DNA from: Bacteroidales bacterium
GTDB lineage: Bacteria; Bacteroidota; Bacteroidia; Bacteroidales; P3
Length of the DNA stretch: 47,744 nucleotides
Assembly: GCA_024400505.1 (NCBI GenBank)
Contig: JAKSMP010000014.1
Span: 1-47,744, forward strand
Reading direction: 5' to 3'
Shown: positions 10,139 through 34,489 of the stretch, piece after piece
Layout: each line of letters begins with the position of its first letter
Numbering within the stretch: the stretch's first letter is position 1
The notes under the pieces: generated by a model
Seen by the model: the letters and a program-made list of their open reading frames with translations, nothing else
What the model was told of the DNA's origin: nothing
Database searches by the model: none
Position numbers and translations under genes: made by a program

Positions 10139-10154
10139 TACATTAAATATTATC

Positions 10155-10697
10155 ATGAAAAAAATCGCATTAATTCTGATGGCCCTTGCATTGGCCATGC
10201 CCATGATGGCTCAAACCAAGAAGAACACCAACGCTGGCAAGTCTGGCGCCAAGACCGAGGTGAAAGAGGTGCAGGCTCCCCTGCCCAAAGTGTATGACGA
10301 AGACATCAACGCCATGGAACAGATAGAGCAGGCCCTGGACATTGCCCGCACCACCAACCGCAAAGTGATCTGCCAGGTGGGTGGCAACTGGTGCCCCTGG
10401 TGCCTCCGTTTTGCCAACTTCATCACCAAAGACGATGAAATTGCCAAGCTGATTGAAGAAAACTTTGTCTATATCCACGTCAACACCTCCAAGGAAAACA
10501 AAAACACCGAGGCCATGAAATTCTTGGGCAACCCCGGTCGCTTTGGCTATCCTGTATTTGTGATTTTGGACCGTGAAGGACGCGTGATGCAGACCGAAAG
10601 CAGCGCCTATCTGGAGAAAGACAAGAGCTACGACCGCGAGAAGGTGAAGGCTTTCTTTGCCAACTGGACCGACGCTGCCATCGACAACCTGAAATAG
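10155..10697 (+). CDS. Exported thioredoxin-fold protein
   Basis: A 180-residue protein with signal peptide MKKIALILMALALAMPMMAQ and a thioredoxin fold. The redox site is CPWC in GGNWCPWCLRF near residue 78, followed by VYIHVNTSKEN and the cis-Pro-like FGYPVFVILD near residue 138. It probably acts as a periplasmic thiol-disulfide reductase or isomerase. The family resembles DUF255/thioredoxin_7 proteins. It lies in a tight rightward run after a CoA transferase and before an EEP lipoprotein gene (10 bases apart). Confidence 0.88.
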   Translation: MKKIALILMALALAMPMMAQTKKNTNAGKSGAKTEVKEVQAPLPKVYDEDINAMEQIEQALDIARTTNRKVICQVGGNWCPWCLRFANFITKDDEIAKLIEENFVYIHVNTSKENKNTEAMKFLGNPGRFGYPVFVILDREGRVMQTESSAYLEKDKSYDREKVKAFFANWTDAAIDNLK

Positions 10698-10707
10698 CCG
10701 TAGGCCG

Positions 10708-11562
10708 ATGAAAAAGACCCTTCTGTTGCTACTGGCCGGTTGGCTGCTCACCGCATGCGCTTCGCACCGCGAGCTAAAGTTCATTTCGTTCAACATTCGC
10801 AACAGCAGCGCATGGCAAGAGGATGGCAGCAACGCTTGGCAGTATCGCCGCGATGCTGTGCTGAAAATGGTTGAGCAGGAGCGGCCCGATGCCATGGGTA
10901 TGCAGGAAATGCTGCCCGACCAGCTGCATTTCTTGGATAGTGCCTTGGCTGGCGACTATGGCCGCATTGGCGTGGGACGCGACGACGGCATGGACGGAGG
11001 CGAGAACATGTGCATCTACTATCGCCGCAGTAGGTTGGGCCTTGTGGATTGGCACACCTATTGGCTCTCGCAAACACCCGATAGCGTCAGCTTTGGCTGG
11101 GACGCAGCTTGCCGCCGCACAGCCACAGTGGCCCAGTTTGTTGACCTGAGCAATGGCGACACGCTGGTGTATGTCAACACCCACCTCGACCATGTAGGTC
11201 CCGAGGCGCGCAAGAATTCTATACTGCTGCTGGTGGATATCTGCCAAAGTTTGCCTTATCCCACCATCATCGGAGGCGATATGAATAGCGATGTGCGCAC
11301 CGACTCCATCTTCTCTCCCCTGAGAGGTGCTGGTTTCCGTCCCGCTCGCGACATGGCACAGTGCAGCGACACGGCCATCACCTTCACCGGATATGGCAAG
11401 TATCCGGCCACGGTGATCGACCACTTTTTTGTGCGACAAAGCCAAGTGAGCCGTTTCCGCACCCTCAATGGCGACTATGGTGTGCCCTATATCTCCGACC
11501 ATTACCCCGTGATGATGGAATTTCGCGTTCATGGACATAAGTCAGCCGTTGACAGCAAGTAG
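10708..11562 (+). CDS. Endonuclease/exonuclease/phosphatase family lipoprotein
   Basis: A 284-residue lipoprotein with lipobox LLTAC near residue 17. It has the EEP fold: FISFNIRNSS at the start of the domain, the metal-binding Glu in MGMQEMLPDQ, YVNTHLDHVG, GGDMNSD and the closing YISDHYPVMMEF, all in order. These give the usual metal and phosphate ligands (N, E, D, H, D/N, SDH). Surface EEP proteins of this type act on nucleic acids, phospholipids or sugar phosphates; the substrate here is unknown. The 3' end overlaps the start of the Dus gene by 32 bases. Confidence 0.9.
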   Translation: MKKTLLLLLAGWLLTACASHRELKFISFNIRNSSAWQEDGSNAWQYRRDAVLKMVEQERPDAMGMQEMLPDQLHFLDSALAGDYGRIGVGRDDGMDGGENMCIYYRRSRLGLVDWHTYWLSQTPDSVSFGWDAACRRTATVAQFVDLSNGDTLVYVNTHLDHVGPEARKNSILLLVDICQSLPYPTIIGGDMNSDVRTDSIFSPLRGAGFRPARDMAQCSDTAITFTGYGKYPATVIDHFFVRQSQVSRFRTLNGDYGVPYISDHYPVMMEFRVHGHKSAVDSK

Positions 11563-12280
11563 TCTTATTACCAAGCCGATATTTTTTGCGCCTATGCAGG
11601 GCATCACCGATGCCCGCTACCGCAGGCAGCATTATACCACTTATGGGGGTGTGGCCGAGTACTACACCCCCTTTGCTCGTGTGGAGCGGGGGCGCATACG
11701 CGACAAAGAGAAGAAAGACTTGCTGCCCGAAAGAAATCAAGGGGTGCCCACCGTGCCGCAAGTGATAGCGCGCGACAGAAGCGAGTTTGCCACGCTCTGC
11801 GACAGCCTCCAGCGCATGGGGTGGGGGCGCATAGACATCAACATGGGGTGCCCATTTCCGCTGCAGGCCACCGCTGGCCGGGGAAGCGGCATACTGCCCC
11901 ATGTGGAGCGAATCGAGGGCATACTGCAAGAGGTGGCGCTGCGCACAGATGTGGCGTTCTCTATCAAGATGCGCCTGGGGTGGGACGACCCGATGCAATG
12001 CTTCGAGATATTGCCCATGATCAACCAATCGCCCATCATGCAAGTGACGCTCCATCCCCGCTTGGGGGTGCAGCAATACGAGGGGACGGTGGATATGGAC
12101 GCATGCTCGCTCTTCTACGACGGTTGCGAGAAACCGCTTGTGTATAATGGCGATATCCACTCCGTTGCCGATATTCGCCGTGTGGTCAAGGCCTTCCCTC
12201 GGCTGCACGCCGTGATGATAGGGCGCGGCCTAGTAGAAAACCCTACGCTGGCACGCGACTACAGCATGGATCAGCGTTAG
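11531..12280 (+). CDS. tRNA-dihydrouridine synthase family protein, short C-terminus
   Basis: Dus enzymes reduce uridines in the tRNA D-loop using FMN and NADPH. The 249-residue product has the FMN-barrel opening KPIFFAPMQGITDARYR, VPQVIARD, INMGCPFPLQ with the catalytic Cys, SIKMRLGWDD, a His near TLHPRLG, YNGDIHSV and MIGRGLVENP. The protein then stops 11 residues after the GRGL motif. Most Dus proteins carry a further helical tRNA-binding domain of about 60-80 residues, which is missing or very short here. The start overlaps the EEP gene. Either the C-terminal domain has been lost or the family branch is naturally short. Confidence 0.88.
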   Translation: MDISQPLTASSLITKPIFFAPMQGITDARYRRQHYTTYGGVAEYYTPFARVERGRIRDKEKKDLLPERNQGVPTVPQVIARDRSEFATLCDSLQRMGWGRIDINMGCPFPLQATAGRGSGILPHVERIEGILQEVALRTDVAFSIKMRLGWDDPMQCFEILPMINQSPIMQVTLHPRLGVQQYEGTVDMDACSLFYDGCEKPLVYNGDIHSVADIRRVVKAFPRLHAVMIGRGLVENPTLARDYSMDQR

Positions 12281-17465: not shown

Positions 17466-18338
17466 TTAGCTGTTCACGGTGAAACAATGGGCCACACGAT
17501 CCACATAGCTTTTGGACACAGGTATAGGTTTGTCGCAGTTGGCCAGTTCCAATACTAGGTTTTCCTTGTCGCGCCGCAAGAGCTTCACATTGCTCAGATT
17601 CACCAGATAACTTCTGTGGCAACGCATCATACCCTGTTGGGCATAGGCTTCTTCAATCTGTTTCATCGAAGTGTGCAGGATGAAACAGTCGGGCTTGTCG
17701 CCGTTGATATAGTGGATGTTGGTGTAGTTGTCTGAGGCCTCCACATATAGCACGTTGGAACGCTTGGTGGCAAATGCTAGGCGCCCCCCCTTGTCGTAGA
17801 AGTTGATAGAATCGTCAATCAGCAGGGGGACTCCGCTTTGCGAATTCAACATGGCTTGCAGCGCTTCTATCTCCAGATTCTTCTCTTTAATAAGATATAT
17901 CAATATAGATATAATATAAGGGATAAAAAGAATGGCCACAATGTCCAGTGCCACACGCCATAAGATATGAGGGTAGGAGAGAGCGTCGTTGCCATTGATG
18001 AAATGGGCGATGGTGGTGATCACGAGGGTGAAAATACCAATCTCGGCAGCCAGCCAGATAACATACACCTTTAGTTCTAGTTGGTGTCGCCGCTGAACCC
18101 TATAAAGAATCATGCGCGAGAGGAACATGACCACCAATCCAGAGAACGATAAGATGACAGTGTAAAGTATGGGTCCGTAGTGGGTGAATCCCTTCGAAAC
18201 GGGGATGTATCCGACCGGTTTATACACCAGCACAAAAAGTATGATGAAGACTACAACTGATATGAAAAAATGAAAAATGCTCCGCTTTTCTGTGAGAAAA
18301 TGGGGTGCGTGAAGTTCTGTCTTTTGTAACAAATCCAT
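17466..18338 (-). CDS. Membrane-bound LytTR transcriptional regulator
   Basis: The start is set at the ATG at 18338 (MDLLQKTELHAPHF), 290 residues. Four hydrophobic spans (about residues 24-44, 57-80, 94-117 and 131-150) precede a short helix (IKEKNLEIEALQAML). A LytTR DNA-binding domain follows (about 190-288), with VLYVEASDNYTNIHY, LHTSMKQIEEAY, MMRCHRSYLVNLSNV and PIPVSKSYVDRV. These membrane LytTR proteins probably sense a membrane or metabolite signal and bind direct repeats. The gene diverges from the fab-etf operon at 18566, making that operon a likely target. TTTTTCGCC words at 18352-18360 and 18393-18401 could be binding sites. Confidence 0.88.
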   Translation of the reverse strand: MDLLQKTELHAPHFLTEKRSIFHFFISVVVFIILFVLVYKPVGYIPVSKGFTHYGPILYTVILSFSGLVVMFLSRMILYRVQRRHQLELKVYVIWLAAEIGIFTLVITTIAHFINGNDALSYPHILWRVALDIVAILFIPYIISILIYLIKEKNLEIEALQAMLNSQSGVPLLIDDSINFYDKGGRLAFATKRSNVLYVEASDNYTNIHYINGDKPDCFILHTSMKQIEEAYAQQGMMRCHRSYLVNLSNVKLLRRDKENLVLELANCDKPIPVSKSYVDRVAHCFTVNS

Positions 18339-18359
18339 TGTTAATTTTCTGTTTTTCGC

Positions 18360-18367
18360 CAAAAATA
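18360..18367 (-). promoter_or_regulatory. Promoter of the LytTR regulator
   Basis: TATTTTTG on the minus strand matches the -7 box. It lies about 20 bases ahead of the start codon, implying a very short leader, and within the 230-base divergent region shared with fabH. Confidence 0.5.
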
Positions 18368-18453
18368 GCCGTTTTTTACCCAAAATAACGACTTTTCGCC
18401 CACTTTATTATATAGTTTATCATAATTAATGTGAATACTTGAAAAAATGTTAG

Positions 18454-18565: not shown

Positions 18566-19522
18566 ATGAAGATTATTGGAACAGGAAGTGCTCTGCCCAG
18601 CTTGGAAGTGACGAATGATATGCTGGCTGAGTTCCTTGACACTAATGACGAATGGATCAGTAGCCGCACTGGTATCAGATCCCGTCGTCTCCGCAGTACT
18701 GAAACTTTGGTTGATTTGGCAGTGAGTGCCTCTCGCTCGGCTCTTGAGTCGGCTGGCTTGAATCCCGAAGAAATAGATTTCTGCATCTGCTCTAATGTTG
18801 CCAACAATTATGTGACCCCTGCTATGAGCTGCATCATTCAGCAACATATCGGCAGCCATTGCCCTTGCTTTGATTTGAATGGTGCATGTGCAGGTTTCCT
18901 TGATGCCATGGAAGTGGCTGAAGCTTTGCTTAAGACCGACAGAGCCGAAAATATTTTGATTGTTTGCGCTGAAGAACCCTCTAGATTCTGCAACTGGGAA
19001 CGCCGTGAGACCAGTATCCTTTTCGCTGATGGTGCTGGTGCAGTGGTTGTGAGCAAGGGTGATGCCCTCAAGGCCATCCGTCTTACCACTGTCCCCAACC
19101 GCGATGTGATCGTTTACCAGCGTCGCCTGGAGACTACTCCCTTCGAGGTTCCTGGTGTTGATGTCACTGAGCCTTTGAAGATGAATGGTCGCGAAGTGTT
19201 CCGTATGGCTGTTGAAACTTCGCAGCGCGACCTTCATGCCATGATGGAAGAGACTGGCATCTCCGCTGACATGATTGACTACTATGTCCTGCATCAGGCC
19301 AACTTGCGTATCATTTCCTCCATCAGAGAACACCTCGGGCAGCCCGAATATAAGTTCCCCACCAACATCGAGCGCACCGGCAACATCTCCTCTGCTAGTA
19401 TTCCCATCTTGTTGGATGAGCTTTACAGCGCTGGACGCCTCAAGAAAGGCGATATGCTTGCTCTGAGCGCTTTTGGTGCTGGATTTGTGTCAGGCTCTGC
19501 AATCATTGAATGGACCAAATAA
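18566..19522 (+). CDS. fabH: 3-oxoacyl-ACP synthase III (KAS III)
   Basis: A 318-residue KAS III of normal length with the Cys-His-Asn triad at Cys108 (NGACAGF), His243 (LHQANLR) and Asn273 (TGNISSAS). The family condenses a CoA-bound primer such as acetyl-CoA with malonyl-ACP to start fatty-acid chains. It is the first gene of an operon that continues with KAS II, FabZ, FabG, EtfB, EtfA and an acyl-CoA dehydrogenase. No acyl carrier protein or malonyl transferase is encoded nearby. Its place in this operon makes a role in a dedicated short-chain pathway likely, though a backup role in normal lipid synthesis cannot be excluded. Confidence 0.95.
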   Translation: MKIIGTGSALPSLEVTNDMLAEFLDTNDEWISSRTGIRSRRLRSTETLVDLAVSASRSALESAGLNPEEIDFCICSNVANNYVTPAMSCIIQQHIGSHCPCFDLNGACAGFLDAMEVAEALLKTDRAENILIVCAEEPSRFCNWERRETSILFADGAGAVVVSKGDALKAIRLTTVPNRDVIVYQRRLETTPFEVPGVDVTEPLKMNGREVFRMAVETSQRDLHAMMEETGISADMIDYYVLHQANLRIISSIREHLGQPEYKFPTNIERTGNISSASIPILLDELYSAGRLKKGDMLALSAFGAGFVSGSAIIEWTK

Positions 19523-19604
19523 TTTAGCTCCTAATCAAATGTGTCTCCGCTTTTTGCGGTATGGCCAATTAAGTATTAATTGACAATTAAAGAAACAAAC
19601 AAAA

Positions 19605-20840
19605 ATGAAAAGAGTAGTAATCACCGGTATGGGTTGCGTCAACCCTCTTGGTAACGATATCAACACCCTTTGGGACAACTTGCTGAAAGGTAAGAATGCC
19701 ATCGATTTTATTTCATCCATCGACAACCCTGATCTGCCCGTTAAAGTGGCTGCTGAGGTAAAAGATTTTGACCCAATCGCCTTGGGTTTGGACAAAGCAA
19801 TGGTTCGTCGTAACGACCGTTATGCCCAGTTTGCTTTGGCTGCTGCCAAGCAGGCCATGGAAGATAGCGGCCTCGTTGTGGGTGAGCATGTTGAGCCCGA
19901 ACGCATTGGTACTGCCATCGGTAGCGGTATCGGCGGCATCCACACCTTCATCAAGGAGCAGACCAACATCCTCTCTGCAGGTGTTCGTCGTGTGAGCCCC
20001 CTTTTCATCCCCATGATGATTGCCAACATCGCTTCTGCCAATGTTGCCATCATGTGCAACTGCCAGGGTCCCAACCTCCCCATCGTCACCGCTTGTGCCA
20101 CCGGCACCCACTCCATCGGTGAGGCTTATCGCATGATCAAGGAAGGCTTGGCCGACGCTATGATCACTGGCGGCACCGAGGCTGCTATCACCGAGATCGC
20201 CATTGGCGGTTTTGCCAACAGCAAGGCGCTCTCCACTGCCGACGATCCCAATGCAGCATCCATCCCCTTCGACGCTCGTCGTCATGGTTTCGTGATGGGC
20301 GAAGGCTCTGGTATCATGGTGCTCGAAGACTACGACATTGCTGTGAAGCGTGGCGCTCACATCTATGCCGAGGTGGTTGGCTATGGCAACACCTGCGATG
20401 CTCACCACTACACCGCTCCTCGTCCCGATGGTAAGTGCGCTGCTCAGGCTCTCCGCCTGGCTCTGCAGGGCGCTGACTATAAGGGCGAAAAACTCTATAT
20501 CAACGCTCACGGTACCTCCACTCCCCTCAACGACAAGAGTGAGACCAGCGCCATCAAGCAGGCTTTGGGCGAAGAGATGGCTCGCAAGGCTGTGATCAGC
20601 TCCACAAAATCCATGATGGGCCACATGCTCGGCGCAGCTGGCGCTATCGAACTTGTGATTAGCGCACTCACCCTGAAACACGGCGCAGTGGCTCCCACCA
20701 TCAACTATCGTGAGGCCGACCCCGAGTGCGACCTGAACTATACCCCAAACACCGCTGTGGATTTCGCTGCCGAGGTGGCCATCTCCAACAGCTTCGGTTT
20801 CGGCGGTCAGAACGCTTGCGTTGCACTTAGGAAACTGTAA
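19605..20840 (+). CDS. fabF: 3-oxoacyl-ACP synthase II (KAS II)
   Basis: A 411-residue elongating condensing enzyme with the Cys-His-His triad Cys164 (VTACATGTHS), His302 (INAHGTSTP) and His340 (KSMMGHMLGA). It extends acyl-ACP with malonyl-ACP. The wording of several blocks (RRVSPLFIPMMIANIAS, TINYREADPECDLNYTPN) recalls clostridial FabF more than the FabF that sits beside acpP in Bacteroides; this comparison is from memory. It lies 82 bases after fabH and is followed by a 111-base gap with a large hairpin. Confidence 0.95.
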   Translation: MKRVVITGMGCVNPLGNDINTLWDNLLKGKNAIDFISSIDNPDLPVKVAAEVKDFDPIALGLDKAMVRRNDRYAQFALAAAKQAMEDSGLVVGEHVEPERIGTAIGSGIGGIHTFIKEQTNILSAGVRRVSPLFIPMMIANIASANVAIMCNCQGPNLPIVTACATGTHSIGEAYRMIKEGLADAMITGGTEAAITEIAIGGFANSKALSTADDPNAASIPFDARRHGFVMGEGSGIMVLEDYDIAVKRGAHIYAEVVGYGNTCDAHHYTAPRPDGKCAAQALRLALQGADYKGEKLYINAHGTSTPLNDKSETSAIKQALGEEMARKAVISSTKSMMGHMLGAAGAIELVISALTLKHGAVAPTINYREADPECDLNYTPNTAVDFAAEVAISNSFGFGGQNACVALRKL

Positions 20841-20852
20841 TTTAGTATTTTC

Positions 20853-20917
20853 GCAGCAGCCTTCCCTTGCTCAGTTATGGTGCCCCAATGCCATACTGAG
20901 GGTAGGGAAGGCCTCTG
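20853..20917 (+). repeat. Large hairpin between fabF and fabZ
   Basis: GCAG..GCCTTCCC..CTCAGT on the left pairs with CTGAG..GGGAAGGC..CTGC on the right, around a central ATGGTG / GCCAT stem. The structure spans 65 bases with few mismatches. No U-run follows, so it is not a simple terminator; it may be an RNA processing or stability element inside the operon. Confidence 0.65.
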
Positions 20918-20951
20918 CACAATAATATAACGAAAAAAAAATAATAGATAT

Positions 20952-21377
20952 ATGGTTATGAATAGAGAAGAAATTAAGACCTTCATGCCCCATCGTGAGC
21001 CAATGCTCATGGTTGATGATGTAGAGTTGCAAGGCGAAGTGGGTGTAGCCCACTATCATGTGACTGGTGATGAGTTTTTCCTTCAAGGTCACTATCCCGG
21101 ATACCCTGTAGTTCCCGGTGTTATCCTGTGTGAAATCATGGCGCAGTCCAGCTGCATCCTCCTCAGGGAAGCATTGGAGAATGCCACTCCTTTCTACAGC
21201 GGCATCGATGGCGCTCGTTTCAAACGTCAGGTACGCCCCGGCGACACAGTGGAAATCACCAGCAAGATTGTAGAGAGCCGTATGGGCACCTACATCGTTG
21301 AGTCCAAAGCCACCGTCGAAGGCCAACTTTGCGTAAGAGGCAAACTCATGTTCACCCTCGTGCCCAAGAACAAATAG
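20952..21377 (+). CDS. fabZ: 3-hydroxyacyl-ACP dehydratase (FabZ type)
   Basis: A 141-residue hotdog-fold dehydratase; an alternative start two codons in (20958) gives MNREEIKTF and is equally good. The active-site His47 lies in GHYPGYPVVPG and the catalytic Glu61 in ILCEIMAQ. DGARFKRQVRPGD near residue 75 is also typical. It removes water from 3-hydroxyacyl thioesters to give trans-2-enoyl thioesters, the position held by crotonase in standard butyrate operons. Stand-alone FabZ is notable because many Bacteroidales carry it fused to LpxC. Confidence 0.93.
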   Translation: MVMNREEIKTFMPHREPMLMVDDVELQGEVGVAHYHVTGDEFFLQGHYPGYPVVPGVILCEIMAQSSCILLREALENATPFYSGIDGARFKRQVRPGDTVEITSKIVESRMGTYIVESKATVEGQLCVRGKLMFTLVPKNK

Positions 21378-21415
21378 TATATTGAATCAATTATTAATAA
21401 TAATAAATAAGCACT

Positions 21416-22162
21416 ATGAAACTGTTAGAAAATAAAATTGCGCTCATCACTGGTGCATCCCGCGGTATTGGCCGTGCCACCGCATTGATGTTTGCTGAGA
21501 ATGGCGCTGATGTGATATTCACCGATTTCCGCGAAGACGAAAACAGCCAGTCCTTGGTAGAAGAAATCAAGGCAAAGGGTGTGCGTTGCACCTTCTTTGC
21601 TGCCGATGCTTCCAACCACGAACGCACCCTGGAGATTGCCAAAGCAGTTGAAGCAGAGTATGGCCGTTTGGACATCCTCATCAACAATGCTGGTATCACC
21701 CGCGACAATCTGCTCATGCGCATGAGCGAAGCCGACTGGGACCTCGTGATGAACTGCAACCTCAAGTCCGTCTTCAACTATTGCAAAGCTTTCACCCCCA
21801 TGATGCTGAAGAAGCGCAGCGGCTCTATCATCAACATCAGCTCCATCGTGGGCATCAACGGCAACGCTGGCCAGTGCAACTATAGCTCCACCAAGGCTGG
21901 TATCATCGGTTTCACCCGCTCTTTGGCCAAGGAGATTGGCTCCCGCAGCGTGCGTGTGAATGCTGTTGCTCCTGGTTTCATCGAGACCCCCATGACCAAG
22001 CAGCTTGGCGAGGCAGCCCTCAACGAGTGGCTCAAAGCCATCCCCATGCGTCGTCCTGGTCAGGCCGACGATATCGCTCGCACTTGCGTTTATCTCGCTT
22101 GCGACCTCTCCACTTACATCACTGGTCAGGTGCTCCGTTGCGACGGCGGTCTCTCCCTCTAA
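21416..22162 (+). CDS. fabG: 3-oxoacyl-ACP reductase (FabG type)
   Basis: A 248-residue short-chain dehydrogenase. The cofactor loop is TGASRGIG (12-19), and NNAGITRDN and the catalytic set Asn115, Ser143, Tyr156 (YSSTK) and Lys160 are present. It reduces 3-oxoacyl thioesters to 3-hydroxyacyl thioesters. Asp37 after the second strand (IFTDFRE) is the type of residue that favours NADH over NADPH in this superfamily; some Bacteroidales FabG proteins share it, so it is suggestive only. It follows fabZ by 38 bases and precedes etfB by 34. Confidence 0.94.
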   Translation: MKLLENKIALITGASRGIGRATALMFAENGADVIFTDFREDENSQSLVEEIKAKGVRCTFFAADASNHERTLEIAKAVEAEYGRLDILINNAGITRDNLLMRMSEADWDLVMNCNLKSVFNYCKAFTPMMLKKRSGSIINISSIVGINGNAGQCNYSSTKAGIIGFTRSLAKEIGSRSVRVNAVAPGFIETPMTKQLGEAALNEWLKAIPMRRPGQADDIARTCVYLACDLSTYITGQVLRCDGGLSL

Positions 22163-22196
22163 TTTCATGAATCAATAGTAATACCAATTAATTACC

Positions 22197-23000
22197 ATGT
22201 CAGGTTTGAAAATTGTTGTACTCGCTAAGCAAGTGCCCGACACTCACAATGTGGGCGCCAATGCTATGAATCCCGACGGCACCGTCAACCGTGCCGCTCT
22301 GCCCACTGTCTTCAACCCCGAAGACTTGAACGCACTGGAAATGGCTCTCCAGATCAAAGACCGTGTGCCCGGCACCCACATCACCGTGGTCACCATGGGT
22401 CTGCCCAAAGCCGCTGGCATCATCACCGACTCCATGAGCCGTGGTGCCGATGCTGGCTTTGTGCTGAGCGACCCCCGTCTGGGTGGCGCCGACACTTTGG
22501 CCACCTCCTACGCCCTCTCCAAGGCTGTTGAGATGGTTGGCAACGTCGATCTCATCATTGGTGGCCGCCAGGCAATCGATGGCGATACCGCTCAGGTAGG
22601 TCCCCAGGTGGCTGAGAAATTGGACATCCCCCAGGTCACCTATGCCGAGACCCTCGTGAATGTTGATGCCAAGAGCATTGAACTCACCCGTCGTTTGGCT
22701 GATGGTATCGAGCAGGTGCGTGTTAACATGCCCGCCGTCATCACCGTCACTGGCACCGCCAAGCCTTGCCGCTTCCCCCATGCCCATCGCCTCATCAAGC
22801 TCGACGGCATGACCGTGGAAACCCGCAATGCTGATGATATCAAACCCGATCTCGAACGTATCGGCAAGAAGGGCTCCCCCACCAAGGTGAAGAAAATCCA
22901 GAACGTAGTACTTGCTCACAAAGAAAGCCAGCAGGTGGCTCCCACCACCGAGGCTCTCAGCGAACTGATGGGTTCACTCATTGCAGAGCATATCATCTAA
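22197..23000 (+). CDS. etfB: Electron transfer flavoprotein, beta subunit
   Basis: A 267-residue EtfB. Family marks are VVLAKQVPDTHNVG at the N-terminus, the EtfB signature GGRQAIDGDTAQVGPQVAEKLDIPQ near residue 121 and the VITVTGTAKPCRFPHAHRLI block. With EtfA it carries electrons between NADH, ferredoxin or other carriers and acyl-CoA dehydrogenase. Whether the complex bifurcates electrons cannot be read safely by eye. A 103-base gap to etfA follows, containing two direct copies of AATTAACAATTAAG and a small GC hairpin. Confidence 0.96.
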   Translation: MSGLKIVVLAKQVPDTHNVGANAMNPDGTVNRAALPTVFNPEDLNALEMALQIKDRVPGTHITVVTMGLPKAAGIITDSMSRGADAGFVLSDPRLGGADTLATSYALSKAVEMVGNVDLIIGGRQAIDGDTAQVGPQVAEKLDIPQVTYAETLVNVDAKSIELTRRLADGIEQVRVNMPAVITVTGTAKPCRFPHAHRLIKLDGMTVETRNADDIKPDLERIGKKGSPTKVKKIQNVVLAHKESQQVAPTTEALSELMGSLIAEHII

Positions 23001-23103
23001 TGAATTAACAATTAAGAATTAACAATTAAGAGCGGTGCTTGCCCCGCTGCACCCACCATCCACACTCTTAAAACATTAAATCTTAAATCCTCAATAGACA
23101 ATT

Positions 23104-24126
23104 ATGAACAATGTATTAGTATATTGCGAACTGACAGAAAATAACCACATCGCAGATATCAGCCTCGAACTCTGCACCAAGGGTCGCCAGTTGGCCACCG
23201 AGATGAACGGTCGCCTCCAGGCAGTAGTGGCTGGCAGCAATATCAAAGAGGTGGCTGCCGAGCTTTATCCCTATGGCGTGGACGAAGTGTTCCTGGCCGA
23301 CGACGCTCGCCTGTCTCCCTATCGCACCCTGCCTCATTTCGAGGTGGTACTCAAGGTCATCAACGAGCAGCAGCCTGATGTAGTGCTCTTCGGCGCCACC
23401 ACCGTGGGCCGCGACTTGGCACCCCGCATCTCTTCACGTCTGCAGTGCGGCCTCACCGCCGACTGCACCGCGCTCGAACTGGGCGACCACACCGACACCC
23501 TCACTGGCAAAGAATACAAAGGCATCCTTCATCAGATCCGTCCCGCCTTCGGCGGCAACATCATTGCCACCATCATCACCCCCGAGAACAAGCCTCAGAT
23601 GGCCACCGTTCGTGAGGGTGTGATGCGCAAAGAGATTTTCGATGCCAATCACAAAGGTACCGTTGCCATGGTTGACGTTTCCGACAAGCTGCATGCTGCC
23701 GACAAGGCTGTCACCATCATCCGTCGCGAAATCGTAGAAAAGAGCATCAACATCAAGGGCGCTTCCATCGTTGTGGCAGGTGGCTATGGTATGGGTTCCA
23801 AAGAGAACTTCCAGCTCCTCCACGACCTTGCTCACCTCATCGGTGGCGAGGTAGGAGCCACCCGTGCTGCTGTTGACGCTGGCTTCTGCGAGCCCGAGCG
23901 CCAGATTGGTCAAACCGGTGTCACCGTGCGTCCTCGTCTCTACATCGCTTGCGGTATCAGCGGCGCTGTTCAACATCGTGCCGGTATGGAGGATTCTGCC
24001 AAGATCATCTCCATCAACACCGACCCCAACGCACCCATCAATGCCATTGCCGACTACACCATCATCGGCGATGCCTGCACCGTGCTGCCTATGATGATGG
24101 ATTGTTATTCCAATAATTTGAAGTAA
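23104..24126 (+). CDS. etfA: Electron transfer flavoprotein, alpha subunit
   Basis: A 340-residue EtfA of normal length. The FAD-binding C-terminal half shows VAGGYGMGSKENFQLLHDLA, GGEVGATRAAVDAGF, ERQIGQTGVTVRPRLYIACGISGAVQH and INTDPNAPINAIADYTIIGD, in the standard order. It pairs with EtfB upstream and with the acyl-CoA dehydrogenase one base downstream (stop 24126, next start 24128). The three together form the Bcd-Etf-like unit that reduces enoyl-CoA or oxidises acyl-CoA. Confidence 0.96.
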   Translation: MNNVLVYCELTENNHIADISLELCTKGRQLATEMNGRLQAVVAGSNIKEVAAELYPYGVDEVFLADDARLSPYRTLPHFEVVLKVINEQQPDVVLFGATTVGRDLAPRISSRLQCGLTADCTALELGDHTDTLTGKEYKGILHQIRPAFGGNIIATIITPENKPQMATVREGVMRKEIFDANHKGTVAMVDVSDKLHAADKAVTIIRREIVEKSINIKGASIVVAGGYGMGSKENFQLLHDLAHLIGGEVGATRAAVDAGFCEPERQIGQTGVTVRPRLYIACGISGAVQHRAGMEDSAKIISINTDPNAPINAIADYTIIGDACTVLPMMMDCYSNNLK

Positions 24127-24127
24127 T

Positions 24128-25714
24128 ATGAATTTTTATACCGACAACCCTAGTCTTTCTTTTTATCTTCATCATCCCGATATGGCTCAGGTCACCGAGG
24201 CTCGTGAGCAGGGATATAGCAAAACCGAAGAAGGCGGTCCCGCCGATAACGAGACTGCGCTGAGACAATACGAAATGGTCCTCAACCTCGTGGGCGAGGT
24301 GGCTGGCGAAGTAATCGCCCCCAATGCTGCCGAAGTTGACCATGTGGGTCCCCAGCTAGTTGACGGCCGTGTGGAGTATGCTCCCGGCACCCGCCAGAAT
24401 CTCGACGCCATCGTTCAGTCCGGTCTTTTCGGCCTCTCGCTCGAACGCCGTTTCAATGGTCTCAATATGCCTCGTGCAGCCATCGTCATGGCTGCCGAGA
24501 TGATTGCTCGCGCCGATGTGGGCTTTGCCACCATCTGGGGCTTGCAAGACTGCGCCGACACTATCCAAGAGTTTGCCGACGAAGAACTCAAGGTCAAATA
24601 CCTCCCCCGCATCTATGAGGGTGCCACCTGCTCCATGGACCTCACCGAGCCCGACGCAGGTTCCGACCTCCAGAGCGTCCGCCTCAAAGCCACTTGGGAC
24701 GAAGCCAACAACTGCTGGCGCCTCAATGGTGTGAAGCGTTTCATCACCAACGGCGATGCCGACATCCACCTCGTGCTTGCACGCTCCGAGGAGGGCACCA
24801 CCGATGGTCGCGGCCTCTCTTACTTCGTTTTCGACAAAGCCGATGGTGGTATGACCGTCCGTCGCATCGAGAACAAGATGGGTATCAAGGGATCCCCCAC
24901 CGCCGAACTCGTTTTCCGCAATGCTCCCGCACAGCTCGTGGGCCAGCGCAAACTCGGTCTCATCAAGTATGTGATGTCACTGATGAATGGCGCTCGCTTG
25001 GGCGTAGGTGCTCAGTCCATCGGCCTTTGCGAAGCTGCCCTTCGCGAAGCTGAGGTCTATGCTGCCAGCCGCGAACAGTTTGGCCATGCCATTGGTCAGT
25101 TCGTAGCTGTTCAGGATCTCATCAGCGCCATCCGCTCCCGCACCGAGGGCGCTCGCACCCTTATGTATGAGACCGCTCGTTGGGTCGATCTCTCTGCCTC
25201 ATCCAAGGCTGCTGCCCGCATCGCCGACATCCTCACTCCTCTGGTCAAGATGACTGCCAGTGAGTTTGCCAACAAGTGCGCCTACGACTGCATCCAGGTT
25301 CACGGCGGTTCCGGCTTCATGAAAGAATATCCTTGCGAACGCCTCTATCGTGATGCCCGCATCCTCACCATCTACGAAGGCACCAGCCAGCTGCAGGTAG
25401 TGGCTGCCATCAAGGGCATTGCCAACGGCGCCTACACCAAGCTCATTGCCGACTACGATGCCAAGGCTGCTCTTGTGGCCACCGAAGGCGAAATGGCTGA
25501 ATGCCTGGCCGCCCTCCGCGCTCGCAGCGCCGAATACGAGGCCCTCTATGCCAAGGCAACCGCCAACGGCACCACCGATCCTCTCTTCGACCACATGGCT
25601 CGCAAACTCACCGAGCACATCGCCACCACCGTTATGGGCTACCTCCTACTTCTCGACTCCGCTCGCGACGCACACTTCATGGGTTCCCTCAAGTGGTTCC
25701 TGGAACAGAACTAA
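24128..25714 (+). CDS. Acyl-CoA dehydrogenase with C-terminal extension
   Basis: A 528-residue flavoprotein, longer than the 380-residue classical Bcd by an N-terminal segment and a C-terminal helical extension of roughly 110 residues. The core carries CSMDLTEPDAGSDLQSVRL, FITNGDADIHLVLAR, KMGIKGSPTAELVF, ASREQFGHAIGQFVAVQ, the QVHGGSGFMKEYPCERLYRDARI block and the catalytic Glu in TIYEGTSQLQ. The same long form occurs beside etf genes in butyrate-forming Porphyromonas. In this operon it would complete the cycle by reducing enoyl thioesters through Etf, the step FabI or FabK performs in lipid synthesis. A strong terminator follows 21 bases after the stop. Confidence 0.94.
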   Translation: MNFYTDNPSLSFYLHHPDMAQVTEAREQGYSKTEEGGPADNETALRQYEMVLNLVGEVAGEVIAPNAAEVDHVGPQLVDGRVEYAPGTRQNLDAIVQSGLFGLSLERRFNGLNMPRAAIVMAAEMIARADVGFATIWGLQDCADTIQEFADEELKVKYLPRIYEGATCSMDLTEPDAGSDLQSVRLKATWDEANNCWRLNGVKRFITNGDADIHLVLARSEEGTTDGRGLSYFVFDKADGGMTVRRIENKMGIKGSPTAELVFRNAPAQLVGQRKLGLIKYVMSLMNGARLGVGAQSIGLCEAALREAEVYAASREQFGHAIGQFVAVQDLISAIRSRTEGARTLMYETARWVDLSASSKAAARIADILTPLVKMTASEFANKCAYDCIQVHGGSGFMKEYPCERLYRDARILTIYEGTSQLQVVAAIKGIANGAYTKLIADYDAKAALVATEGEMAECLAALRARSAEYEALYAKATANGTTDPLFDHMARKLTEHIATTVMGYLLLLDSARDAHFMGSLKWFLEQN

Positions 25715-25735: not shown

Positions 25736-25773
25736 CAGGGCGAGAACCAGAATGGTTCTCGCCCTGTTTTTTT
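25736..25773 (+). terminator. Rho-independent terminator of the fab-etf-acd operon
   Basis: A 13-bp hairpin (CAGGGCGAGAACC, loop AGAAT, GGTTCTCGCCCTG) is followed by seven Ts. It separates the operon from the second CoA transferase. Confidence 0.93.
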
Positions 25774-26011: not shown

Positions 26012-27319
26012 ATGAAACCTATTAAATTTGTGTCGGCTGACGAGGCCGTAAAGGTTGTCAAGAGTGGCGACCACATCCATTTCAGCAGTGTTTCCGCTTA
26101 TCCCGTCATCTTGGGTGAAGCTTTGGCCCGCCGTGGCGACAGCGGCGAACTCAAAGACGTTCGCATCCACCACCTCCACACCGAGGGCTATGCCCCCTAC
26201 ACCCAGGAGAAATACAATGGTGTATTCTTCGCTCAGGGCTTCTTCGTGGGTGGCAATGTCCGCAAAGACACCCAGGCAGGTTGGGCCGACTATATCCCCA
26301 TCTTCCTCCGCGAGACCCAGAAACTCTATCGCGAGGGCGTTCTCCCCTGCGATGTGGCCATGATTCAGGTCTCCCCCGTCGATAAGCACGGCTATGTCTC
26401 CCTCGGCACCTCCGTCGATGCCACCTTGGCTGCCATCGAGTGCGCCAAGACCGTCATCGCCGTCATGAACCCCAACGTGCCTCGCGCATGGGGCAATGCC
26501 AACATCCCTGCCGACATGGTTGACATCTGGGTTGAGGACGACACCCCCCTCACTCCCGCAAAACCCGCCGCTCCCTCCGAGACCGATATGCTCATTGGTG
26601 AGCACGTGGCTGCCTTGGTTGAAGATGGCGCTTGCCTCCAGATGGGTATTGGTGCTATCCCCAATGCTGTGCTTGCCAAGATTGGCGACCACAAGAATTT
26701 GGGTGTCCACACCGAGATGTTCTCCGATGGTCTGCTCCCCCTCATCGAGAGTGGCGCCGTCAACGGCATGAACAAGAAATATCGTCGTGGCCGTATCGTT
26801 TCCACCTTCCTCATGGGCTCCAAAGAACTCTACGACTTCATCGACGACAACCCCGCTGTTTATATGACCGATGTAAAATACTCCAACGATCCCCAAATCA
26901 TTGGTATGAACCCCAAAGTCACCGCCATCAACTCTGCCCTGCAGGTTGACCTCACCGGCCAGGTGTGCGCCGACTCCATCGGCACCAAGTTCTACAGCGG
27001 TGTAGGCGGCCAGATCGACTTTGTGGACGGAGCCAACCTCTCCGAAGGTGGTAAGGCCATTATCGCCATGCCCTCCATCACCGCCAAGGGTGTCAGCAAG
27101 ATTGCTCCCATTCTCACCCCCGGTGCTGGCGTAGTCACCACCCGCAACCACATCCACTGGCTTGTTACCGAAAATGGTGCTGTTGACCTCTATGGCAAGA
27201 GCCTCCAGGAGCGTGCCAAACTCATCATCAGCATTGCTCACCCCAGCGCACAAGAGGAATTGGATCGTGCTGCATTCGAGCGTTTCGGTCCCCACTATCT
27301 CTCTGTCAACATCAAATAG
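26012..27319 (+). CDS. Acetyl-CoA hydrolase/transferase family protein (butyrate/4-hydroxybutyrate CoA-transferase type), second copy
   Basis: The start is the ATG at 26012 (MKPIKFVSADEAVKVVKSGD); an in-frame TTG at 25973 only adds a translated leader. The 435-residue protein has the expected thioester-forming Glu235 in GVHTEMFSDG, the glycine-rich MGIGAIPNAV before it, and DLTGQVCADSIGTKFYSGVGGQIDF in the C-terminal half. It is a clear paralog of the protein at 8825-10138. Placed just after Etf and acyl-CoA dehydrogenase it most likely transfers CoA from the finished acyl-CoA to acetate, releasing an acid such as butyrate. Substrate choice is inferred from position. Confidence 0.93.
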   Translation: MKPIKFVSADEAVKVVKSGDHIHFSSVSAYPVILGEALARRGDSGELKDVRIHHLHTEGYAPYTQEKYNGVFFAQGFFVGGNVRKDTQAGWADYIPIFLRETQKLYREGVLPCDVAMIQVSPVDKHGYVSLGTSVDATLAAIECAKTVIAVMNPNVPRAWGNANIPADMVDIWVEDDTPLTPAKPAAPSETDMLIGEHVAALVEDGACLQMGIGAIPNAVLAKIGDHKNLGVHTEMFSDGLLPLIESGAVNGMNKKYRRGRIVSTFLMGSKELYDFIDDNPAVYMTDVKYSNDPQIIGMNPKVTAINSALQVDLTGQVCADSIGTKFYSGVGGQIDFVDGANLSEGGKAIIAMPSITAKGVSKIAPILTPGAGVVTTRNHIHWLVTENGAVDLYGKSLQERAKLIISIAHPSAQEELDRAAFERFGPHYLSVNIK

Positions 27320-32093: not shown

Positions 32094-34415
32094 TTACTTG
32101 ACCATGAGGCGGCGCACAATCTGATGTCCGTTGCCAGCGAAGCGAACGGTGTAAATGCCTGGGGCAAAGTGGTCGGTGCGGATGGCGAAGGTGATGGAGC
32201 CTGCGGTTTGGAGGGTGGTGGTGTGGATGGTGCGACCGAGCTCGTCGATGATGGCCACCTGATAACGGCCACCGTCACCAAGGTTGATGTTGATCTTGGC
32301 TTGGTCGGAAGCGGGGTTGGGGTAGAACTGGCCAAAGGCGTTGTCGAGATTGGCCTCGTCGATGCCCACAGGGTGGACAGGGGGCTGGGGAGCCTCGTTG
32401 GTATCGAGGTAGGTGCGGTTGGCGGCAAAGGTGAAGGTGATGTCGGTGAGGGGACGGGGCTCGGTGGAGAAGTCGTAGTTGACGCTGTCGAGCACCTCTT
32501 CCTGGCCATTGAAATAGAAGCTGTAGTAGCCTCCCTGGTGGGCGGTCATGGGCTTGGTGATGGTCTTGCCGTTGTTGGAAGTGGCGGAGATGTAGTACTC
32601 AAAGGTGATATTGGTGTCGCGGAGGGTGGCGATAGTGTCGGTGTAGTTGACGGTGTCGAGGCTATAGGTGTAGTTGTAGTTTACCACAGAGTCGATGACC
32701 ACGGTGTCGATGGAGATGAGTGTACTATCCACGCGGCTCATGGCAGCGAAAGTGGTGTCGAACACACGGTCGTTGATGGAGGCGGTGGGGATGACACTGG
32801 AGAATTTGTTGCCATTGGCGTTGAGGGCGATGGTCTGCCACTCGCCGCCATTGATGCGGTAGATGCACTCAGCATGATCGATGCCGCTACGGTTGGTGAT
32901 GATGGCCGACACGGGGATGTCGTGGCCGCGCATGTCGTTGGCGGTGCCCACAATGCTTTTGTGGAGGATGCGCACGGGGTTGTCGGCAGGAATTTGCTTG
33001 GTGATGCAGTGAATGGCGCCACCGGAACCGTCGTAGTCGCGCACGTCAATGGGATAGATGGTGTAGCCGGGGTAGGCGGCCTTGAGTTGCTCGATGTTAT
33101 GGCGATCCCAGGCAGCGGTGGGCTGGCCGTTGATTACGCTGGAGAAAACGGGCTGGAGGATGAGGTCGTTGACAAAGGTGTGGTTGCTATAGGTGCGGGT
33201 GTACTGCTCGTTGTAGGTTGACTGGTTGGCGAAGTTGCCACCATTGTCGGTGCTGGGGAAGGGGATGGATGCCTTATAGTAGGGGCGGTCGAAGATGCTG
33301 GTGTAGGAGCAGAGGGAGTCGATGTTGCGGGCTCCGGTGCGATAGTCAGTCCATGAGCTATAGGTGTCGGGCATGATGGAGAACACAAAGCCGTTTTCTT
33401 CGCACATATCGGCATAGAGGTCGATGTGGCCGGTGCCGCCGTCATAGCGGTAGGCGGTCAGCACGTGGGTCTCGCGCTGGCCAAGGAGGTCGCGCAGGGC
33501 CTGGCGGGTTTGGTTGTTGGTGAGGCTGGTCTTGGTGGTGTAGTGGATGCTACTGGGGTTGCGTCCGTCCCAGGTGATTTGCCCCACTTGGTCGCGGTTG
33601 TTGGCATAAACGGCATCGCTGGTGAAGAGGAATCCGGCGCCATCAACGAGGCAGTTGCCACCTTCCCACTCGATGGTGTTGATGTAGTTGGGAATGTTCA
33701 TCTGGCGGGTGATGAGCGAGGGGAGGGAGTCGTCGAGGGCACGGCCGGGATAGTACTCGAAGTCGAGCATGGCCAGACTGTCTTGGTCGCCATAGTAGAA
33801 GCAGATGGGACCGCAGTCGCGATACCAGAAGGAGTTGCCGGAGCCTACGATAAAGCGGACGCTATCGTGGCGGAAACCCAGGCGAGCGAGGGTGCGAAGC
33901 ACGGCGAGGGAATCTTGTGCTTTCTCCACGCGTACCCATGCCTCGGCATGGCCGCGCTGGATGCCGTCCATGAGGCTGAAGGCGGTTCGACCGAAGGAGG
34001 ATGCGGTGTCCATCTCGCTGACGTAGGGGCCTTGGATGCCCATGGAGATCCATCCACGGGTGAAGTTATACTGGTAGTAGTCGGCAACGCCAGTGACGAG
34101 GGGGTCGGCAGAGAAATAACCTGAACCGAGGTTGGTGTCGGGCAAGTATTCATAGTAGGGGGTGACCACAATGGCTTTCACCTCTTCCCATTCGCCGGGG
34201 AACCACACTCGGTCTTCGGGGAGTGATTTGCCCTGCTTGGCAGCAGGAGCGGCTTCGCCCATGGGGATGTTGCTTTTGGCGGCTTGGCCAGAGATGTTGC
34301 GCTGGTGCTTTACTTGGCGCCATTCGCGCATCATTTGCTCTTTGTTGGTTGCGTTCTGGGCCATAGAGGCCAAGGCGAGGCCCAGAAAGAGCACGGATAA
34401 AATTATTTTTTTCAT
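32094..34415 (-). CDS. T9SS-secreted peptidylarginine deiminase-like protein
   Basis: A 773-residue exported protein starting at the ATG at 34413-34415 with signal peptide MKKIILSVLFLGLALASMAQ. Residues about 70-480 belong to the agmatine/peptidylarginine deiminase family (PF04371 type) that includes Porphyromonas PPAD. Active-site marks are in the family order: Asp200 in WYRDCGP, WEGGNCLVDG near 250, His330 and Asp332 in GGTGHIDLY, and the nucleophile Cys470 in SGGAIHCITKQ. An Ig-like region with YYISATS follows. The last 75 residues are a type A T9SS sorting domain (FYPNPASDQ ... GIYTVRF ... RRLMVK). It would turn arginine residues or free arginine derivatives into citrulline at the cell surface or outside. 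The domain order matches PPAD, but the protein is about 200 residues longer. Confidence 0.9.
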   Translation of the reverse strand: MKKIILSVLFLGLALASMAQNATNKEQMMREWRQVKHQRNISGQAAKSNIPMGEAAPAAKQGKSLPEDRVWFPGEWEEVKAIVVTPYYEYLPDTNLGSGYFSADPLVTGVADYYQYNFTRGWISMGIQGPYVSEMDTASSFGRTAFSLMDGIQRGHAEAWVRVEKAQDSLAVLRTLARLGFRHDSVRFIVGSGNSFWYRDCGPICFYYGDQDSLAMLDFEYYPGRALDDSLPSLITRQMNIPNYINTIEWEGGNCLVDGAGFLFTSDAVYANNRDQVGQITWDGRNPSSIHYTTKTSLTNNQTRQALRDLLGQRETHVLTAYRYDGGTGHIDLYADMCEENGFVFSIMPDTYSSWTDYRTGARNIDSLCSYTSIFDRPYYKASIPFPSTDNGGNFANQSTYNEQYTRTYSNHTFVNDLILQPVFSSVINGQPTAAWDRHNIEQLKAAYPGYTIYPIDVRDYDGSGGAIHCITKQIPADNPVRILHKSIVGTANDMRGHDIPVSAIITNRSGIDHAECIYRINGGEWQTIALNANGNKFSSVIPTASINDRVFDTTFAAMSRVDSTLISIDTVVIDSVVNYNYTYSLDTVNYTDTIATLRDTNITFEYYISATSNNGKTITKPMTAHQGGYYSFYFNGQEEVLDSVNYDFSTEPRPLTDITFTFAANRTYLDTNEAPQPPVHPVGIDEANLDNAFGQFYPNPASDQAKININLGDGGRYQVAIIDELGRTIHTTTLQTAGSITFAIRTDHFAPGIYTVRFAGNGHQIVRRLMVK

Positions 34416-34489
34416 TGAGTGATTTATATAAGTATTATTCAATAATTATTATTTTGTTTTGCAATGAGTGAGTTTATTGCAAAAGCGAA

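What the first reader, a model, noticed from the sequence alone, without database searches (positions are those of the whole stretch)
18566..25714. Hybrid operon: fatty-acid-synthesis enzymes coupled to Etf and acyl-CoA dehydrogenase
Seven genes lie in one rightward run with gaps of 1-111 bases and a single strong terminator at the end: KASIII, KASII, FabZ, FabG, EtfB, EtfA and acyl-CoA dehydrogenase. All active-site residues are intact. In known butyrate or reverse beta-oxidation operons the first steps are done by thiolase, hydroxyacyl-CoA dehydrogenase and crotonase. Here the Fab enzymes hold those places, and the usual enoyl-ACP reductase (FabI/FabK/FabV) is replaced by an Etf-linked flavoprotein. 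This could be a decarboxylative, malonyl-driven route to short- or medium-chain acids that ends in electron disposal. The open question is whether the chain is carried on CoA or on an ACP, since no ACP gene is present.
Basis: partly seen in the sequence, partly recalled or inferred. Interest (0 to 1): 0.88.

Follow-up and report, generated by a model that had tools for sequence, protein, structure and literature searches.

The report
Fatty-acid operon with swapped last enzyme
A group of uncultured gut Bacteroidales seems to have lost the usual enzyme for the last step of fatty-acid synthesis and may use an electron-transfer flavoprotein with an acyl dehydrogenase instead, which could let the cell recover energy while it builds its membrane fats.

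Summary
The seven-gene operon is real at the stated coordinates. The order fabH-F-Z-G-etfB-etfA-acad is complete in 26 of 28 related loci; a second order holds in 10 of 10 others. It looks like the lineage's fatty-acid-synthesis set, not a fermentation side route. Canonical FabH was found only there or in the matching fab cluster. Thiolase is absent in 59 of 59 genus genomes. ACP genes lie in or beside 16 of 28 first-layout operons and inside 10 of 10 second-layout ones. No FabI, FabK or FabV was recognised in the 59, while 32 of 40 other Bacteroidales families have FabI. FabH and the long ACAD disappear together: 49 genomes have both, 7 neither, 3 ACAD only. The Etf is of bifurcating type. 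Best reading: Etf-ACAD is the enoyl-ACP reductase, possibly coupled to ferredoxin. Reaction and carrier are inferred. Caveats: some genomes keep FabG and KAS without any recognised reductase or long ACAD, and the window encodes a lysine-fermentation enzyme and two CoA-transferases, so a butyrate role is not excluded.

The parts
17466..18383 (-). LytTR-type transcription regulator with about four hydrophobic N-terminal helices, divergent from the operon; the real start is probably an internal ATG near 18338
   Evidence: PF04397 64.6 bits; helices read from the translation; found beside fabH in 24 of 28 group A and 10 of 10 group B loci
18372..18407 (.). degenerate 20-bp-spaced repeat (ACCCAAAAT / GCCCACTTT), possible LytTR operator
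   Evidence: read (the repeat finder lists no direct repeat in the window); 20-bp lag in 44 of 67 LytTR-fabH intergenic regions against 9.5 in shuffles (some of the 67 are two records of one genome)
18566..19522 (+). fabH, beta-ketoacyl-ACP synthase III
   Evidence: NF006829 327.6 bits over cut-off 249; TIGR00747 279.9, under its cut-off 292.1
19605..20840 (+). fabF, beta-ketoacyl-ACP synthase II
   Evidence: TIGR03150 563.2 bits over cut-off
20952..21377 (+). fabZ, 3-hydroxyacyl-ACP dehydratase
   Evidence: NF000582 120.7 bits over cut-off 113; TIGR01750 107.4, under its cut-off 155.15
21416..22162 (+). fabG, 3-oxoacyl-ACP reductase
   Evidence: TIGR01830 323.5 bits over cut-off
22197..23000 (+). 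etfB, bifurcating-type Etf small subunit
   Evidence: best five PDB matches are bifurcating or confurcating Etfs (labels partly recalled); Gly129 aligns with A. fermentans Gly123
23104..24126 (+). etfA, Etf large subunit, with RPAFGG motif
   Evidence: 5ol2_A 286.4 bits, 6fah_A 280.3 bits
24128..25714 (+). acyl-CoA dehydrogenase family protein, 528 aa, catalytic Glu417; proposed enoyl-ACP reductase
   Evidence: PF02771/02770/00441/12186; model pLDDT 88.5, closest full-length folds FadE2, MMPA-CoA dehydrogenase, FadE1, FadE5
25736..25766 (+). intrinsic-terminator-like hairpin ending the operon
   Evidence: 14-pair stem, T run
26012..27319 (+). 4-hydroxybutyrate/butyryl-type CoA-transferase, separate unit, not part of the conserved operon
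   Evidence: 2oas 440.2 bits; TIGR03948 313 bits, under cut-off 674.8; in the held flanks found elsewhere only in L034

Best explanation
The operon is this lineage's type II fatty-acid-synthesis set, in which FabI/FabK/FabV has been replaced by an unrelated module: a bifurcating-type EtfAB plus a large acyl-CoA-dehydrogenase-family protein run in the reductive direction. FabH, FabF, FabG and FabZ make trans-2-enoyl-ACP; NADH reduces EtfAB, and Etf passes electrons to the FAD of the dehydrogenase, which reduces enoyl-ACP to acyl-ACP. A membrane-anchored LytTR regulator divergent from fabH probably controls it. Shown: genes, conserved linkage, ACP in or beside many sister operons, no recognised classical reductase, joint absence with FabH, Etf sequence type. 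Inferred: the reaction, ACP as carrier, NADH as donor, and ferredoxin co-reduction (about even odds given the rest).
For: 1) FabI: none recognised in 59 genus genomes (best 93.7 bits, not FabI by motif); 32 of 40 other-family Bacteroidales have 95-131 bits (Y-x6-K read in the six of twelve printed; one scanned, best matches FabI models). FabV: only three borderline hits under cut-off in the 59, 2 of 40 elsewhere (it rings in 0 of 14 controls). FabK: none above 29 bits in the 59, while 9 of 26 other genomes have 288-432 bits, all under the cut-off 453. 2) FabH (best KASIII hit 102-118 bits) in 49 of 52 genomes with the long ACAD and 0 of 7 without; 31/31 and 0/3 at 90% completeness. G040's two KASIII proteins, 24-28% identical to the window FabH, were not counted. 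3) Two recurrent orders: full fabH-F-Z-G-etfB-etfA-acad in 26 of 28 loci, FabH-F-Z-EtfB-ACP-EtfA-ACAD-FabG in 10 of 10; permuted in G003, and ACP-FabF-FabH-EtfB-EtfA-ACAD in L059. 4) ACP in or beside 16 of 28 and inside 10 of 10; four scanned ACPs exceed TIGR00517's cut-off. 5) Inside the genus a distant Etf-ACAD lineage (C) replaces lineage A, shares the fabH contig in 15 of 22 genomes with both, and in G031 rebuilds the contiguous order (lineage by identity where not in the tree). 6) No thiolase in 59 of 59. 7) A separate short ACAD-EtfB-EtfA set exists in relatives and could do catabolic crotonyl-CoA reduction. 8) EtfB type. 9) Full-length fold neighbours include FadE1 and FadE5 entries with C4- to C20-CoA ligands.
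Against: G013, G014, G037, G040 and G049 lack FabH and the long ACAD yet keep a FabG and KAS genes (an ACP-fabF pair seen in G014 and G037) with no recognised reductase; G059 and G061 (98-99% complete) have no FabI, FabK, FabV or long ACAD. So an unknown reductase may exist; a short ACAD is present in G059, G061, G013, G037 and G049. Two of ten group B genomes also carry a FabK-like gene, and FabV was not tested in group B. Of the 32 FabI-bearing genomes, 20 also have a long ACAD, so it has some other or overlapping use there. Many C-lineage genomes have the fab cluster and Etf-ACAD apart, 7 of 22 on different contigs. The own genome is 73% complete. The window carries Kce and two CoA-transferases, and in L089 a Kce lies about 6 kb from an unlinked Etf-ACAD. 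The dehydrogenase's closest solved relatives mostly act on CoA esters. The group 2 Etf motif RXGV is only partly kept.
Confidence: 0.68

Rival explanations
1. Fermentative route: Fab enzymes build short- or medium-chain acyl groups from malonyl units; Etf-ACAD disposes of electrons; a CoA-transferase releases the acid.
For: No thiolase in the genus. A CoA-transferase lies 297 bases downstream and another at 8825-10138. Bifurcating-type Etf is usual in fermenting anaerobes (recalled). A second fabF in most relatives and a second FabG in many could be a separate lipid set.
Against: No other canonical FabH was found, and 8 of 14 near-complete A-lineage genomes have no other FabG at E<=1e-40. The CoA-transferase is a separate unit behind a terminator and, in the held flanks, was found near the operon only in L034. 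ACP, not a CoA enzyme, is the recurrent extra gene.
Confidence: 0.1
2. Dual or catabolic use: Etf-ACAD is mainly the crotonyl-CoA reductase (Bcd) of lysine fermentation to butyrate and sits with fab genes for co-regulation, perhaps also serving fatty-acid synthesis.
For: The window encodes 3-keto-5-aminohexanoate cleavage enzyme over its cut-off and two 4-hydroxybutyrate/butyryl-type CoA-transferases. Only the operon ACAD was found in the own genome. In L089 a Kce lies about 6 kb from EtfB-EtfA-ACAD.
Against: A separate short ACAD-EtfB-EtfA set, 88-98% identical to that of G037 in 12 relatives that were picked for having it, is available for that step; the own genome is 73% complete. No kce was found in the held flanks of the fab-linked loci other than the window's contig itself, where it is 9 kb downstream. 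FabH and ACAD are absent together and no other enoyl-ACP reductase is recognised.
Confidence: 0.12
3. An unrecognised enoyl-ACP reductase (for example an SDR, an MDR or the short Etf-ACAD set) serves fatty-acid synthesis, and Etf-ACAD in the operon does something else, such as an acyl-ACP oxidation.
For: Some genomes have FabG and KAS but neither a classical reductase nor the long ACAD.
Against: In the own genome the five SDR-C2 matches are the operon FabG and four others without the FabI motif. A bifurcating-type Etf favours the reductive direction with NADH (inference). It leaves unexplained why Etf-ACAD goes with FabH.
Confidence: 0.1

Closest known systems
Type II fatty-acid synthesis with FabI, FabK, FabL or FabV
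   Same: FabH, FabF, FabZ, FabG and (in many sister operons) ACP; enoyl thioester to acyl thioester as the proposed final step
   Different: no FabI/FabK/FabV recognised; an Etf plus ACAD-family protein stands in the reductase position
Bifurcating EtfAB-Bcd (Clostridioides difficile 5ol2, Acidaminococcus fermentans 4kpu/4l1f) and caffeyl-CoA reductase CarCDE (6fah)
   Same: EtfB/EtfA sequence type and adjacent acyl-CoA-dehydrogenase partner with catalytic Glu
   Different: embedded in a fab operon with ACP in many relatives; partner is 528 aa with an extra C-terminal domain, fold nearest over full length to FadE2, MMPA-CoA dehydrogenase, FadE1, FadE5; ferredoxin reduction untested
Carrier-protein ACADs: prolyl-ACP dehydrogenase (4irn), TcsD acyl-ACP/acyl-CoA dehydrogenase (6u1v), ColB1 (7xp7)
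   Same: ACAD fold reported to act on carrier-bound substrates (entry titles only)
   Different: secondary-metabolism enzymes (recalled) working as dehydrogenases; not fatty-acid-synthesis reductases with Etf
Helicobacter pylori FabX
   Same: handles acyl-ACP in fatty-acid synthesis (PMC8626469, search listing and start of abstract only); flavoprotein is recalled
   Different: recalled as another protein family (NMO/FabK-like); described as dehydrogenase/isomerase

Membership tests
Type II fatty-acid-synthesis operon | FabH, FabF, FabG, FabZ with intact catalytic motifs | tested here: met
   (motifs recalled)
Type II fatty-acid-synthesis operon | ACP present | tested here: inconclusive
   no ACP motif in the window; in or beside 16 of 28 group A and inside 10 of 10 group B operons; ACP content of the own genome was not searched
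Type II fatty-acid-synthesis operon | sole canonical initiating enzyme (housekeeping role) | tested here: met
   own genome: operon copy plus one KASIII 26% identical in another cluster. Eight genus genomes have extra KASIII matches; those aligned (G000, G031, G040) are 24-28% identical, the others (G012, G016, G020, G021, G056) were judged by score only, 46-96 bits
Classical enoyl-ACP reductase (FabI/FabK/FabV) | a homologue in the genome | tested here: not met
   none recognised in 59 genus genomes; own genome is 73% complete, 34 of the 59 are at least 90% complete
Enoyl-ACP reductase (by activity) | reduces enoyl-ACP | not testable with these tools
   needs an enzyme assay
Electron-bifurcating (group 2) Etf | Gly at A. 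fermentans EtfB position 123 | tested here: met
   Gly129 of window EtfB aligns with it; criterion from passages of PMC12630350. In other loci: 100 of 122 EtfB by pattern; of the 22 misses, three of five printed have it, two are N-masked, 17 (loci L001-L028) were not printed one by one, L001 being cut before the site
Electron-bifurcating (group 2) Etf | RPXFGG motif | tested here: met
   RPAFGG in the window EtfA; 122 of 128 loci by pattern, six misses not inspected; motif from passages of PMC10734219
Electron-bifurcating (group 2) Etf | RXGV motif ('most group 2 sequences') | tested here: not met
   window has RAAL at that place: Arg kept, Gly-Val not
Electron-bifurcating (group 2) Etf | GXXSPTXV motif | tested here: inconclusive
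   window reads GKKGSPTKV; T. maritima's own aligned sequence reads GFFGSPTRV, so the printed motif may be short by one letter
Electron-bifurcating (group 2) Etf | NADH-dependent ferredoxin reduction | not testable with these tools
   assay needed
Acetyl-CoA butyrate / reverse beta-oxidation pathway | thiolase | tested here: not met
   0 of 59 genomes
Acetyl-CoA butyrate / reverse beta-oxidation pathway | hydroxyacyl-CoA dehydrogenase and crotonase | not tested
Lysine fermentation to butyrate | Kce present | tested here: met
   NF052387 409.5 bits over 382 at 34554-35381
Lysine fermentation to butyrate | aminomutases, Kdd, Kal | not tested

The most novel reading that the evidence does not exclude
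A new kind of enoyl-ACP reductase, unrelated to FabI/FabL/FabV and to FabK: a ferredoxin-reducing, electron-bifurcating EtfAB-ACAD complex built into type II fatty-acid synthesis. Each elongation cycle would oxidise two NADH, reduce one enoyl-ACP and two ferredoxins, so that membrane-lipid synthesis returns energy that FabI-type enzymes let go.
Probability: 0.38. Interest if true: 0.92.

Novelty: new variant of a known kind. Interest (0 to 1): 0.78.

Why it matters
Enoyl-ACP reductase is a control point and drug target of bacterial fatty-acid synthesis, with a few forms known (recalled: FabI, FabK, FabL, FabV). A gut lineage that uses an Etf-linked dehydrogenase would add another form, explain how these uncultured bacteria make membranes, and predict that FabI or FabK inhibitors spare them. 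If the Etf bifurcates, lipid synthesis would be tied to ferredoxin-based energy conservation. The Bcd complex couples crotonyl-CoA reduction (E0' -10 mV) to ferredoxin reduction (-405 mV) with NADH (-320 mV) (PMC5691135, passages); the same arithmetic would hold for an enoyl-ACP of similar potential (inference). The idea is testable with a handful of purified proteins.

Tried and rejected
Reverse beta-oxidation or thiolase butyrate operon: rejected, no thiolase in 59 of 59. Aryl-polyene/flexirubin cluster: the operon lacks its typical partners; such a cluster (MMPL, LolA, acyltransferase, methyltransferase, KAS fusion; labels from reading the ORFs, recalled) is separate in G014 and G037. A hidden FabI in G031 (93.7 bits, the genus maximum): its motif is Y-x3-K, not Y-x6-K, so an ordinary SDR. 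CoA-transferase as an operon member: rejected, terminator between and not conserved there. Horizontal one-off in one species: rejected by the genus-wide linkage.

Led nowhere or stayed open: one fold and two structure comparisons gave the ACAD fold and large FadE-type relatives, but nothing on ACP versus CoA. A protein search with FabH (capped candidates) listed 120 relatives; the few named ones are Bacteroidales bacteria, no well-studied isolate. Paper searches for an Etf- or ACAD-type enoyl-ACP reductase and for the general topic listed none whose title or abstract start describes one; only open-licence full texts are held. Of the two papers listed I saw passages: one is about lipid hydrogen isotopes (PMC4916218); the other says no close homologue of fabI was identified in the anaerobe Caldithrix abyssi (PMC5317091). 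The Fisher p-values ignore shared ancestry.

Full report
OBSERVATION. The seven genes are at the stated coordinates on one strand with gaps of 82, 111, 38, 34, 103 and 1 bases, match FabH, FabF, FabZ, FabG, EtfB, EtfA and an acyl-CoA dehydrogenase, and end at a strong terminator-like hairpin, 25736-25766. Two neighbours were missed. A divergent LytTR-family regulator with about four hydrophobic helices lies at 17466-18383 (helices read). A CoA-transferase follows at 26012-27319 as a separate unit with its own terminator. The window is a whole contig of a 73%-complete genome. The titles of the group A and B relatives are uncultured Bacteroidales MAGs, many from herbivore guts; the genus name is not known to me.

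CONSERVED LINKAGE. One search kept the best 80 loci with the dehydrogenase. Twenty-eight (group A) carry the operon; the full order FabH-FabF-FabZ-FabG-EtfB-EtfA-ACAD is in 26 of them (in L039 FabF is matched in two pieces), L038 starts inside fabF at a contig end and L045 shows no FabG; LytTR was found in 24 of 28. Ten (group B) carry LytTR-FabH-FabF-FabZ-EtfB-ACP-EtfA-ACAD-FabG. Of the other 42, L059 has ACP-FabF-FabH(33% identical)-EtfB-EtfA-ACAD, L077 and L082 show a FabH-like gene (32-33%) on the opposite strand, and 39 show no FabH, FabF or FabZ within the held flank, some flanks being short. In G003 the order is EtfB-EtfA-ACAD-FabH-FabF-FabZ-FabG.

ACP. ACP genes were found between FabG and EtfB in 9 of 28 group A loci, just beyond LytTR in 7, and in none of the other 12; in group B between EtfB and EtfA in 10 of 10. 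Four sampled ACPs exceed TIGR00517's cut-off. The window shows no ACP motif.

MISSING REDUCTASE. The NCBIfam FabI model (NF006369) gives 95-131 bits in 32 of 40 Bacteroidales genomes of other families, all under its curated cut-off of 370 but with the FabI motif in the six printed. None of the 59 genus genomes exceeds 93.7 bits, and that best match has an ordinary SDR motif. The FabV domain has three borderline hits of about 20 bits, under the cut-off, in the 59 and two clear ones in the 40; it rings in none of the 14 controls. The FabK model gives no match above 29 bits in the 59; 9 of 26 genomes tested later have 288-432 bits, under the cut-off of 453. In the own genome the five SDR-C2 matches are the operon FabG and four proteins with Y-x3-K.

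HOUSEKEEPING STATUS. The KASIII C-terminal domain is found in 50 of 59 genus genomes. I counted 49 as FabH by their best score (102-118 bits) and left out G040, whose two KASIII proteins are 24-28% identical to the window FabH. Eight genomes have extra KASIII matches; those of G000, G031 and G040 were aligned (24-28%), the rest judged by score. The 59 genomes often have two or more KAS (PF02801) matches, the own genome only one; a second fabF beside an ACP gene was seen in G014, G037 and G020. The cluster FabG is the only FabG at E<=1e-40 in 8 of 14 A-lineage genomes at least 90% complete; the other six have a second of 41-49% identity, and so do most C-lineage genomes.

JOINT LOSS AND REPLACEMENT. 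The long ACAD is in 52 of 59 genus genomes (entered). FabH is in 49 of those 52 and in 0 of the 7 without the ACAD; at 90% completeness the counts are 31/31 and 0/3. Of the three ACAD-positive genomes without FabH, G041's cluster is cut by a contig end (L038), G025's FabF lies near a contig start, and in G026 no fab gene was found on its 9.5-kb contig. FabH and ACAD share a contig in 41 of 49, within 8 kb in 28. By identity 29 of the 52 carry the A lineage and 23 the C lineage; on the ACAD tree (97 rows, quick method, seven of them C) groups A and B, G003 and L059 fall in one supported clade and group C far away, beside a sequence from another family. So the Etf-ACAD module has been exchanged inside the genus. 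In lineage C it is on the fabH contig in 15 of 22 genomes, 5 to 22 kb away, and in G031 it again forms the contiguous order FabH-F-Z-G-EtfB-EtfA-ACAD. In L109 and L110 FabI itself lies directly upstream of EtfB-EtfA-ACAD.

REGULATION. Between LytTR and fabH, 10-mers repeat at a 20-bp lag in 44 of 67 regions against 9.5 in shuffles (some regions are two records of one genome), as an operator for LytTR might (inference). The repeat is degenerate in the window.

AGAINST. Operon-less genomes G013, G014, G037, G040 and G049 keep a FabG and KAS genes; G059 and G061 lack every classical reductase tested and the long ACAD. They may scavenge fatty acids, may use the short ACAD that G013, G037, G049, G059 and G061 have, or an unknown reductase may exist. 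Two of ten group B genomes also have a FabK-like gene, and FabV was not tested in group B. Twenty of the 32 FabI-bearing genomes also carry a long ACAD. The window encodes Kce over its cut-off and a second CoA-transferase, and L089 has Kce about 6 kb from an Etf-ACAD, so lysine fermentation to butyrate is possible and would need a crotonyl-CoA reductase. A short ACAD-EtfB-EtfA set, 88-98% identical to that of G037 in 12 relatives picked for having it, is the natural candidate but was not seen in the own genome.

CONCLUSION. The best reading is a type II fatty-acid-synthesis operon whose enoyl-ACP reductase has been replaced by an Etf-linked dehydrogenase. Activity, carrier and ferredoxin coupling remain to be shown by experiment.

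Noticed in passing
window 34554-35381 (-): 3-keto-5-aminohexanoate cleavage enzyme (NF052387 over cut-off), a marker of lysine fermentation to butyrate.
   Followed up: partly
window 8825-10138 (+): Second 4-hydroxybutyrate/butyryl-type CoA-transferase in the same contig.
   Followed up: partly
L252, L254-L265: Separate short ACAD-EtfB-EtfA set, 88-98% identical to that of G037 in 12 relatives sampled (EtfA cut off in L260), far more conserved than the fab-linked module.
   Followed up: partly
G059, G061: Near-complete Bacteroidales genomes with no FabI, FabK, FabV or long ACAD recognised; how they reduce enoyl-ACP is unknown.
   Followed up: no
L109, L110 (also G063, G078): FabI lies directly upstream of EtfB-EtfA-ACAD, behind RecN, in L109 and L110; in G063 and G078 FabI is within 4 kb of the ACAD.
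   Followed up: partly
L089 1627 and 8030-11605: Kce relative (64%) about 6 kb from EtfB-EtfA-ACAD that has no fab genes nearby; two LytTR-like hits and an AMP-ligase lie between or around.
   Followed up: no
L060 5011-5155: Six 22-nt direct repeats (TTCGTCACAAAA...) at 20-41 bp spacing between LytTR and fabH in a group B locus.
   Followed up: partly
window 32097-34442 (-): Porphyromonas-type peptidyl-arginine deiminase domain with a Por secretion tail.
   Followed up: no
L077, L082: FabH-like gene (32-33%) on the opposite strand about 3.5 kb from EtfB-EtfA-ACAD in MAGs titled Prevotellaceae.
   Followed up: no
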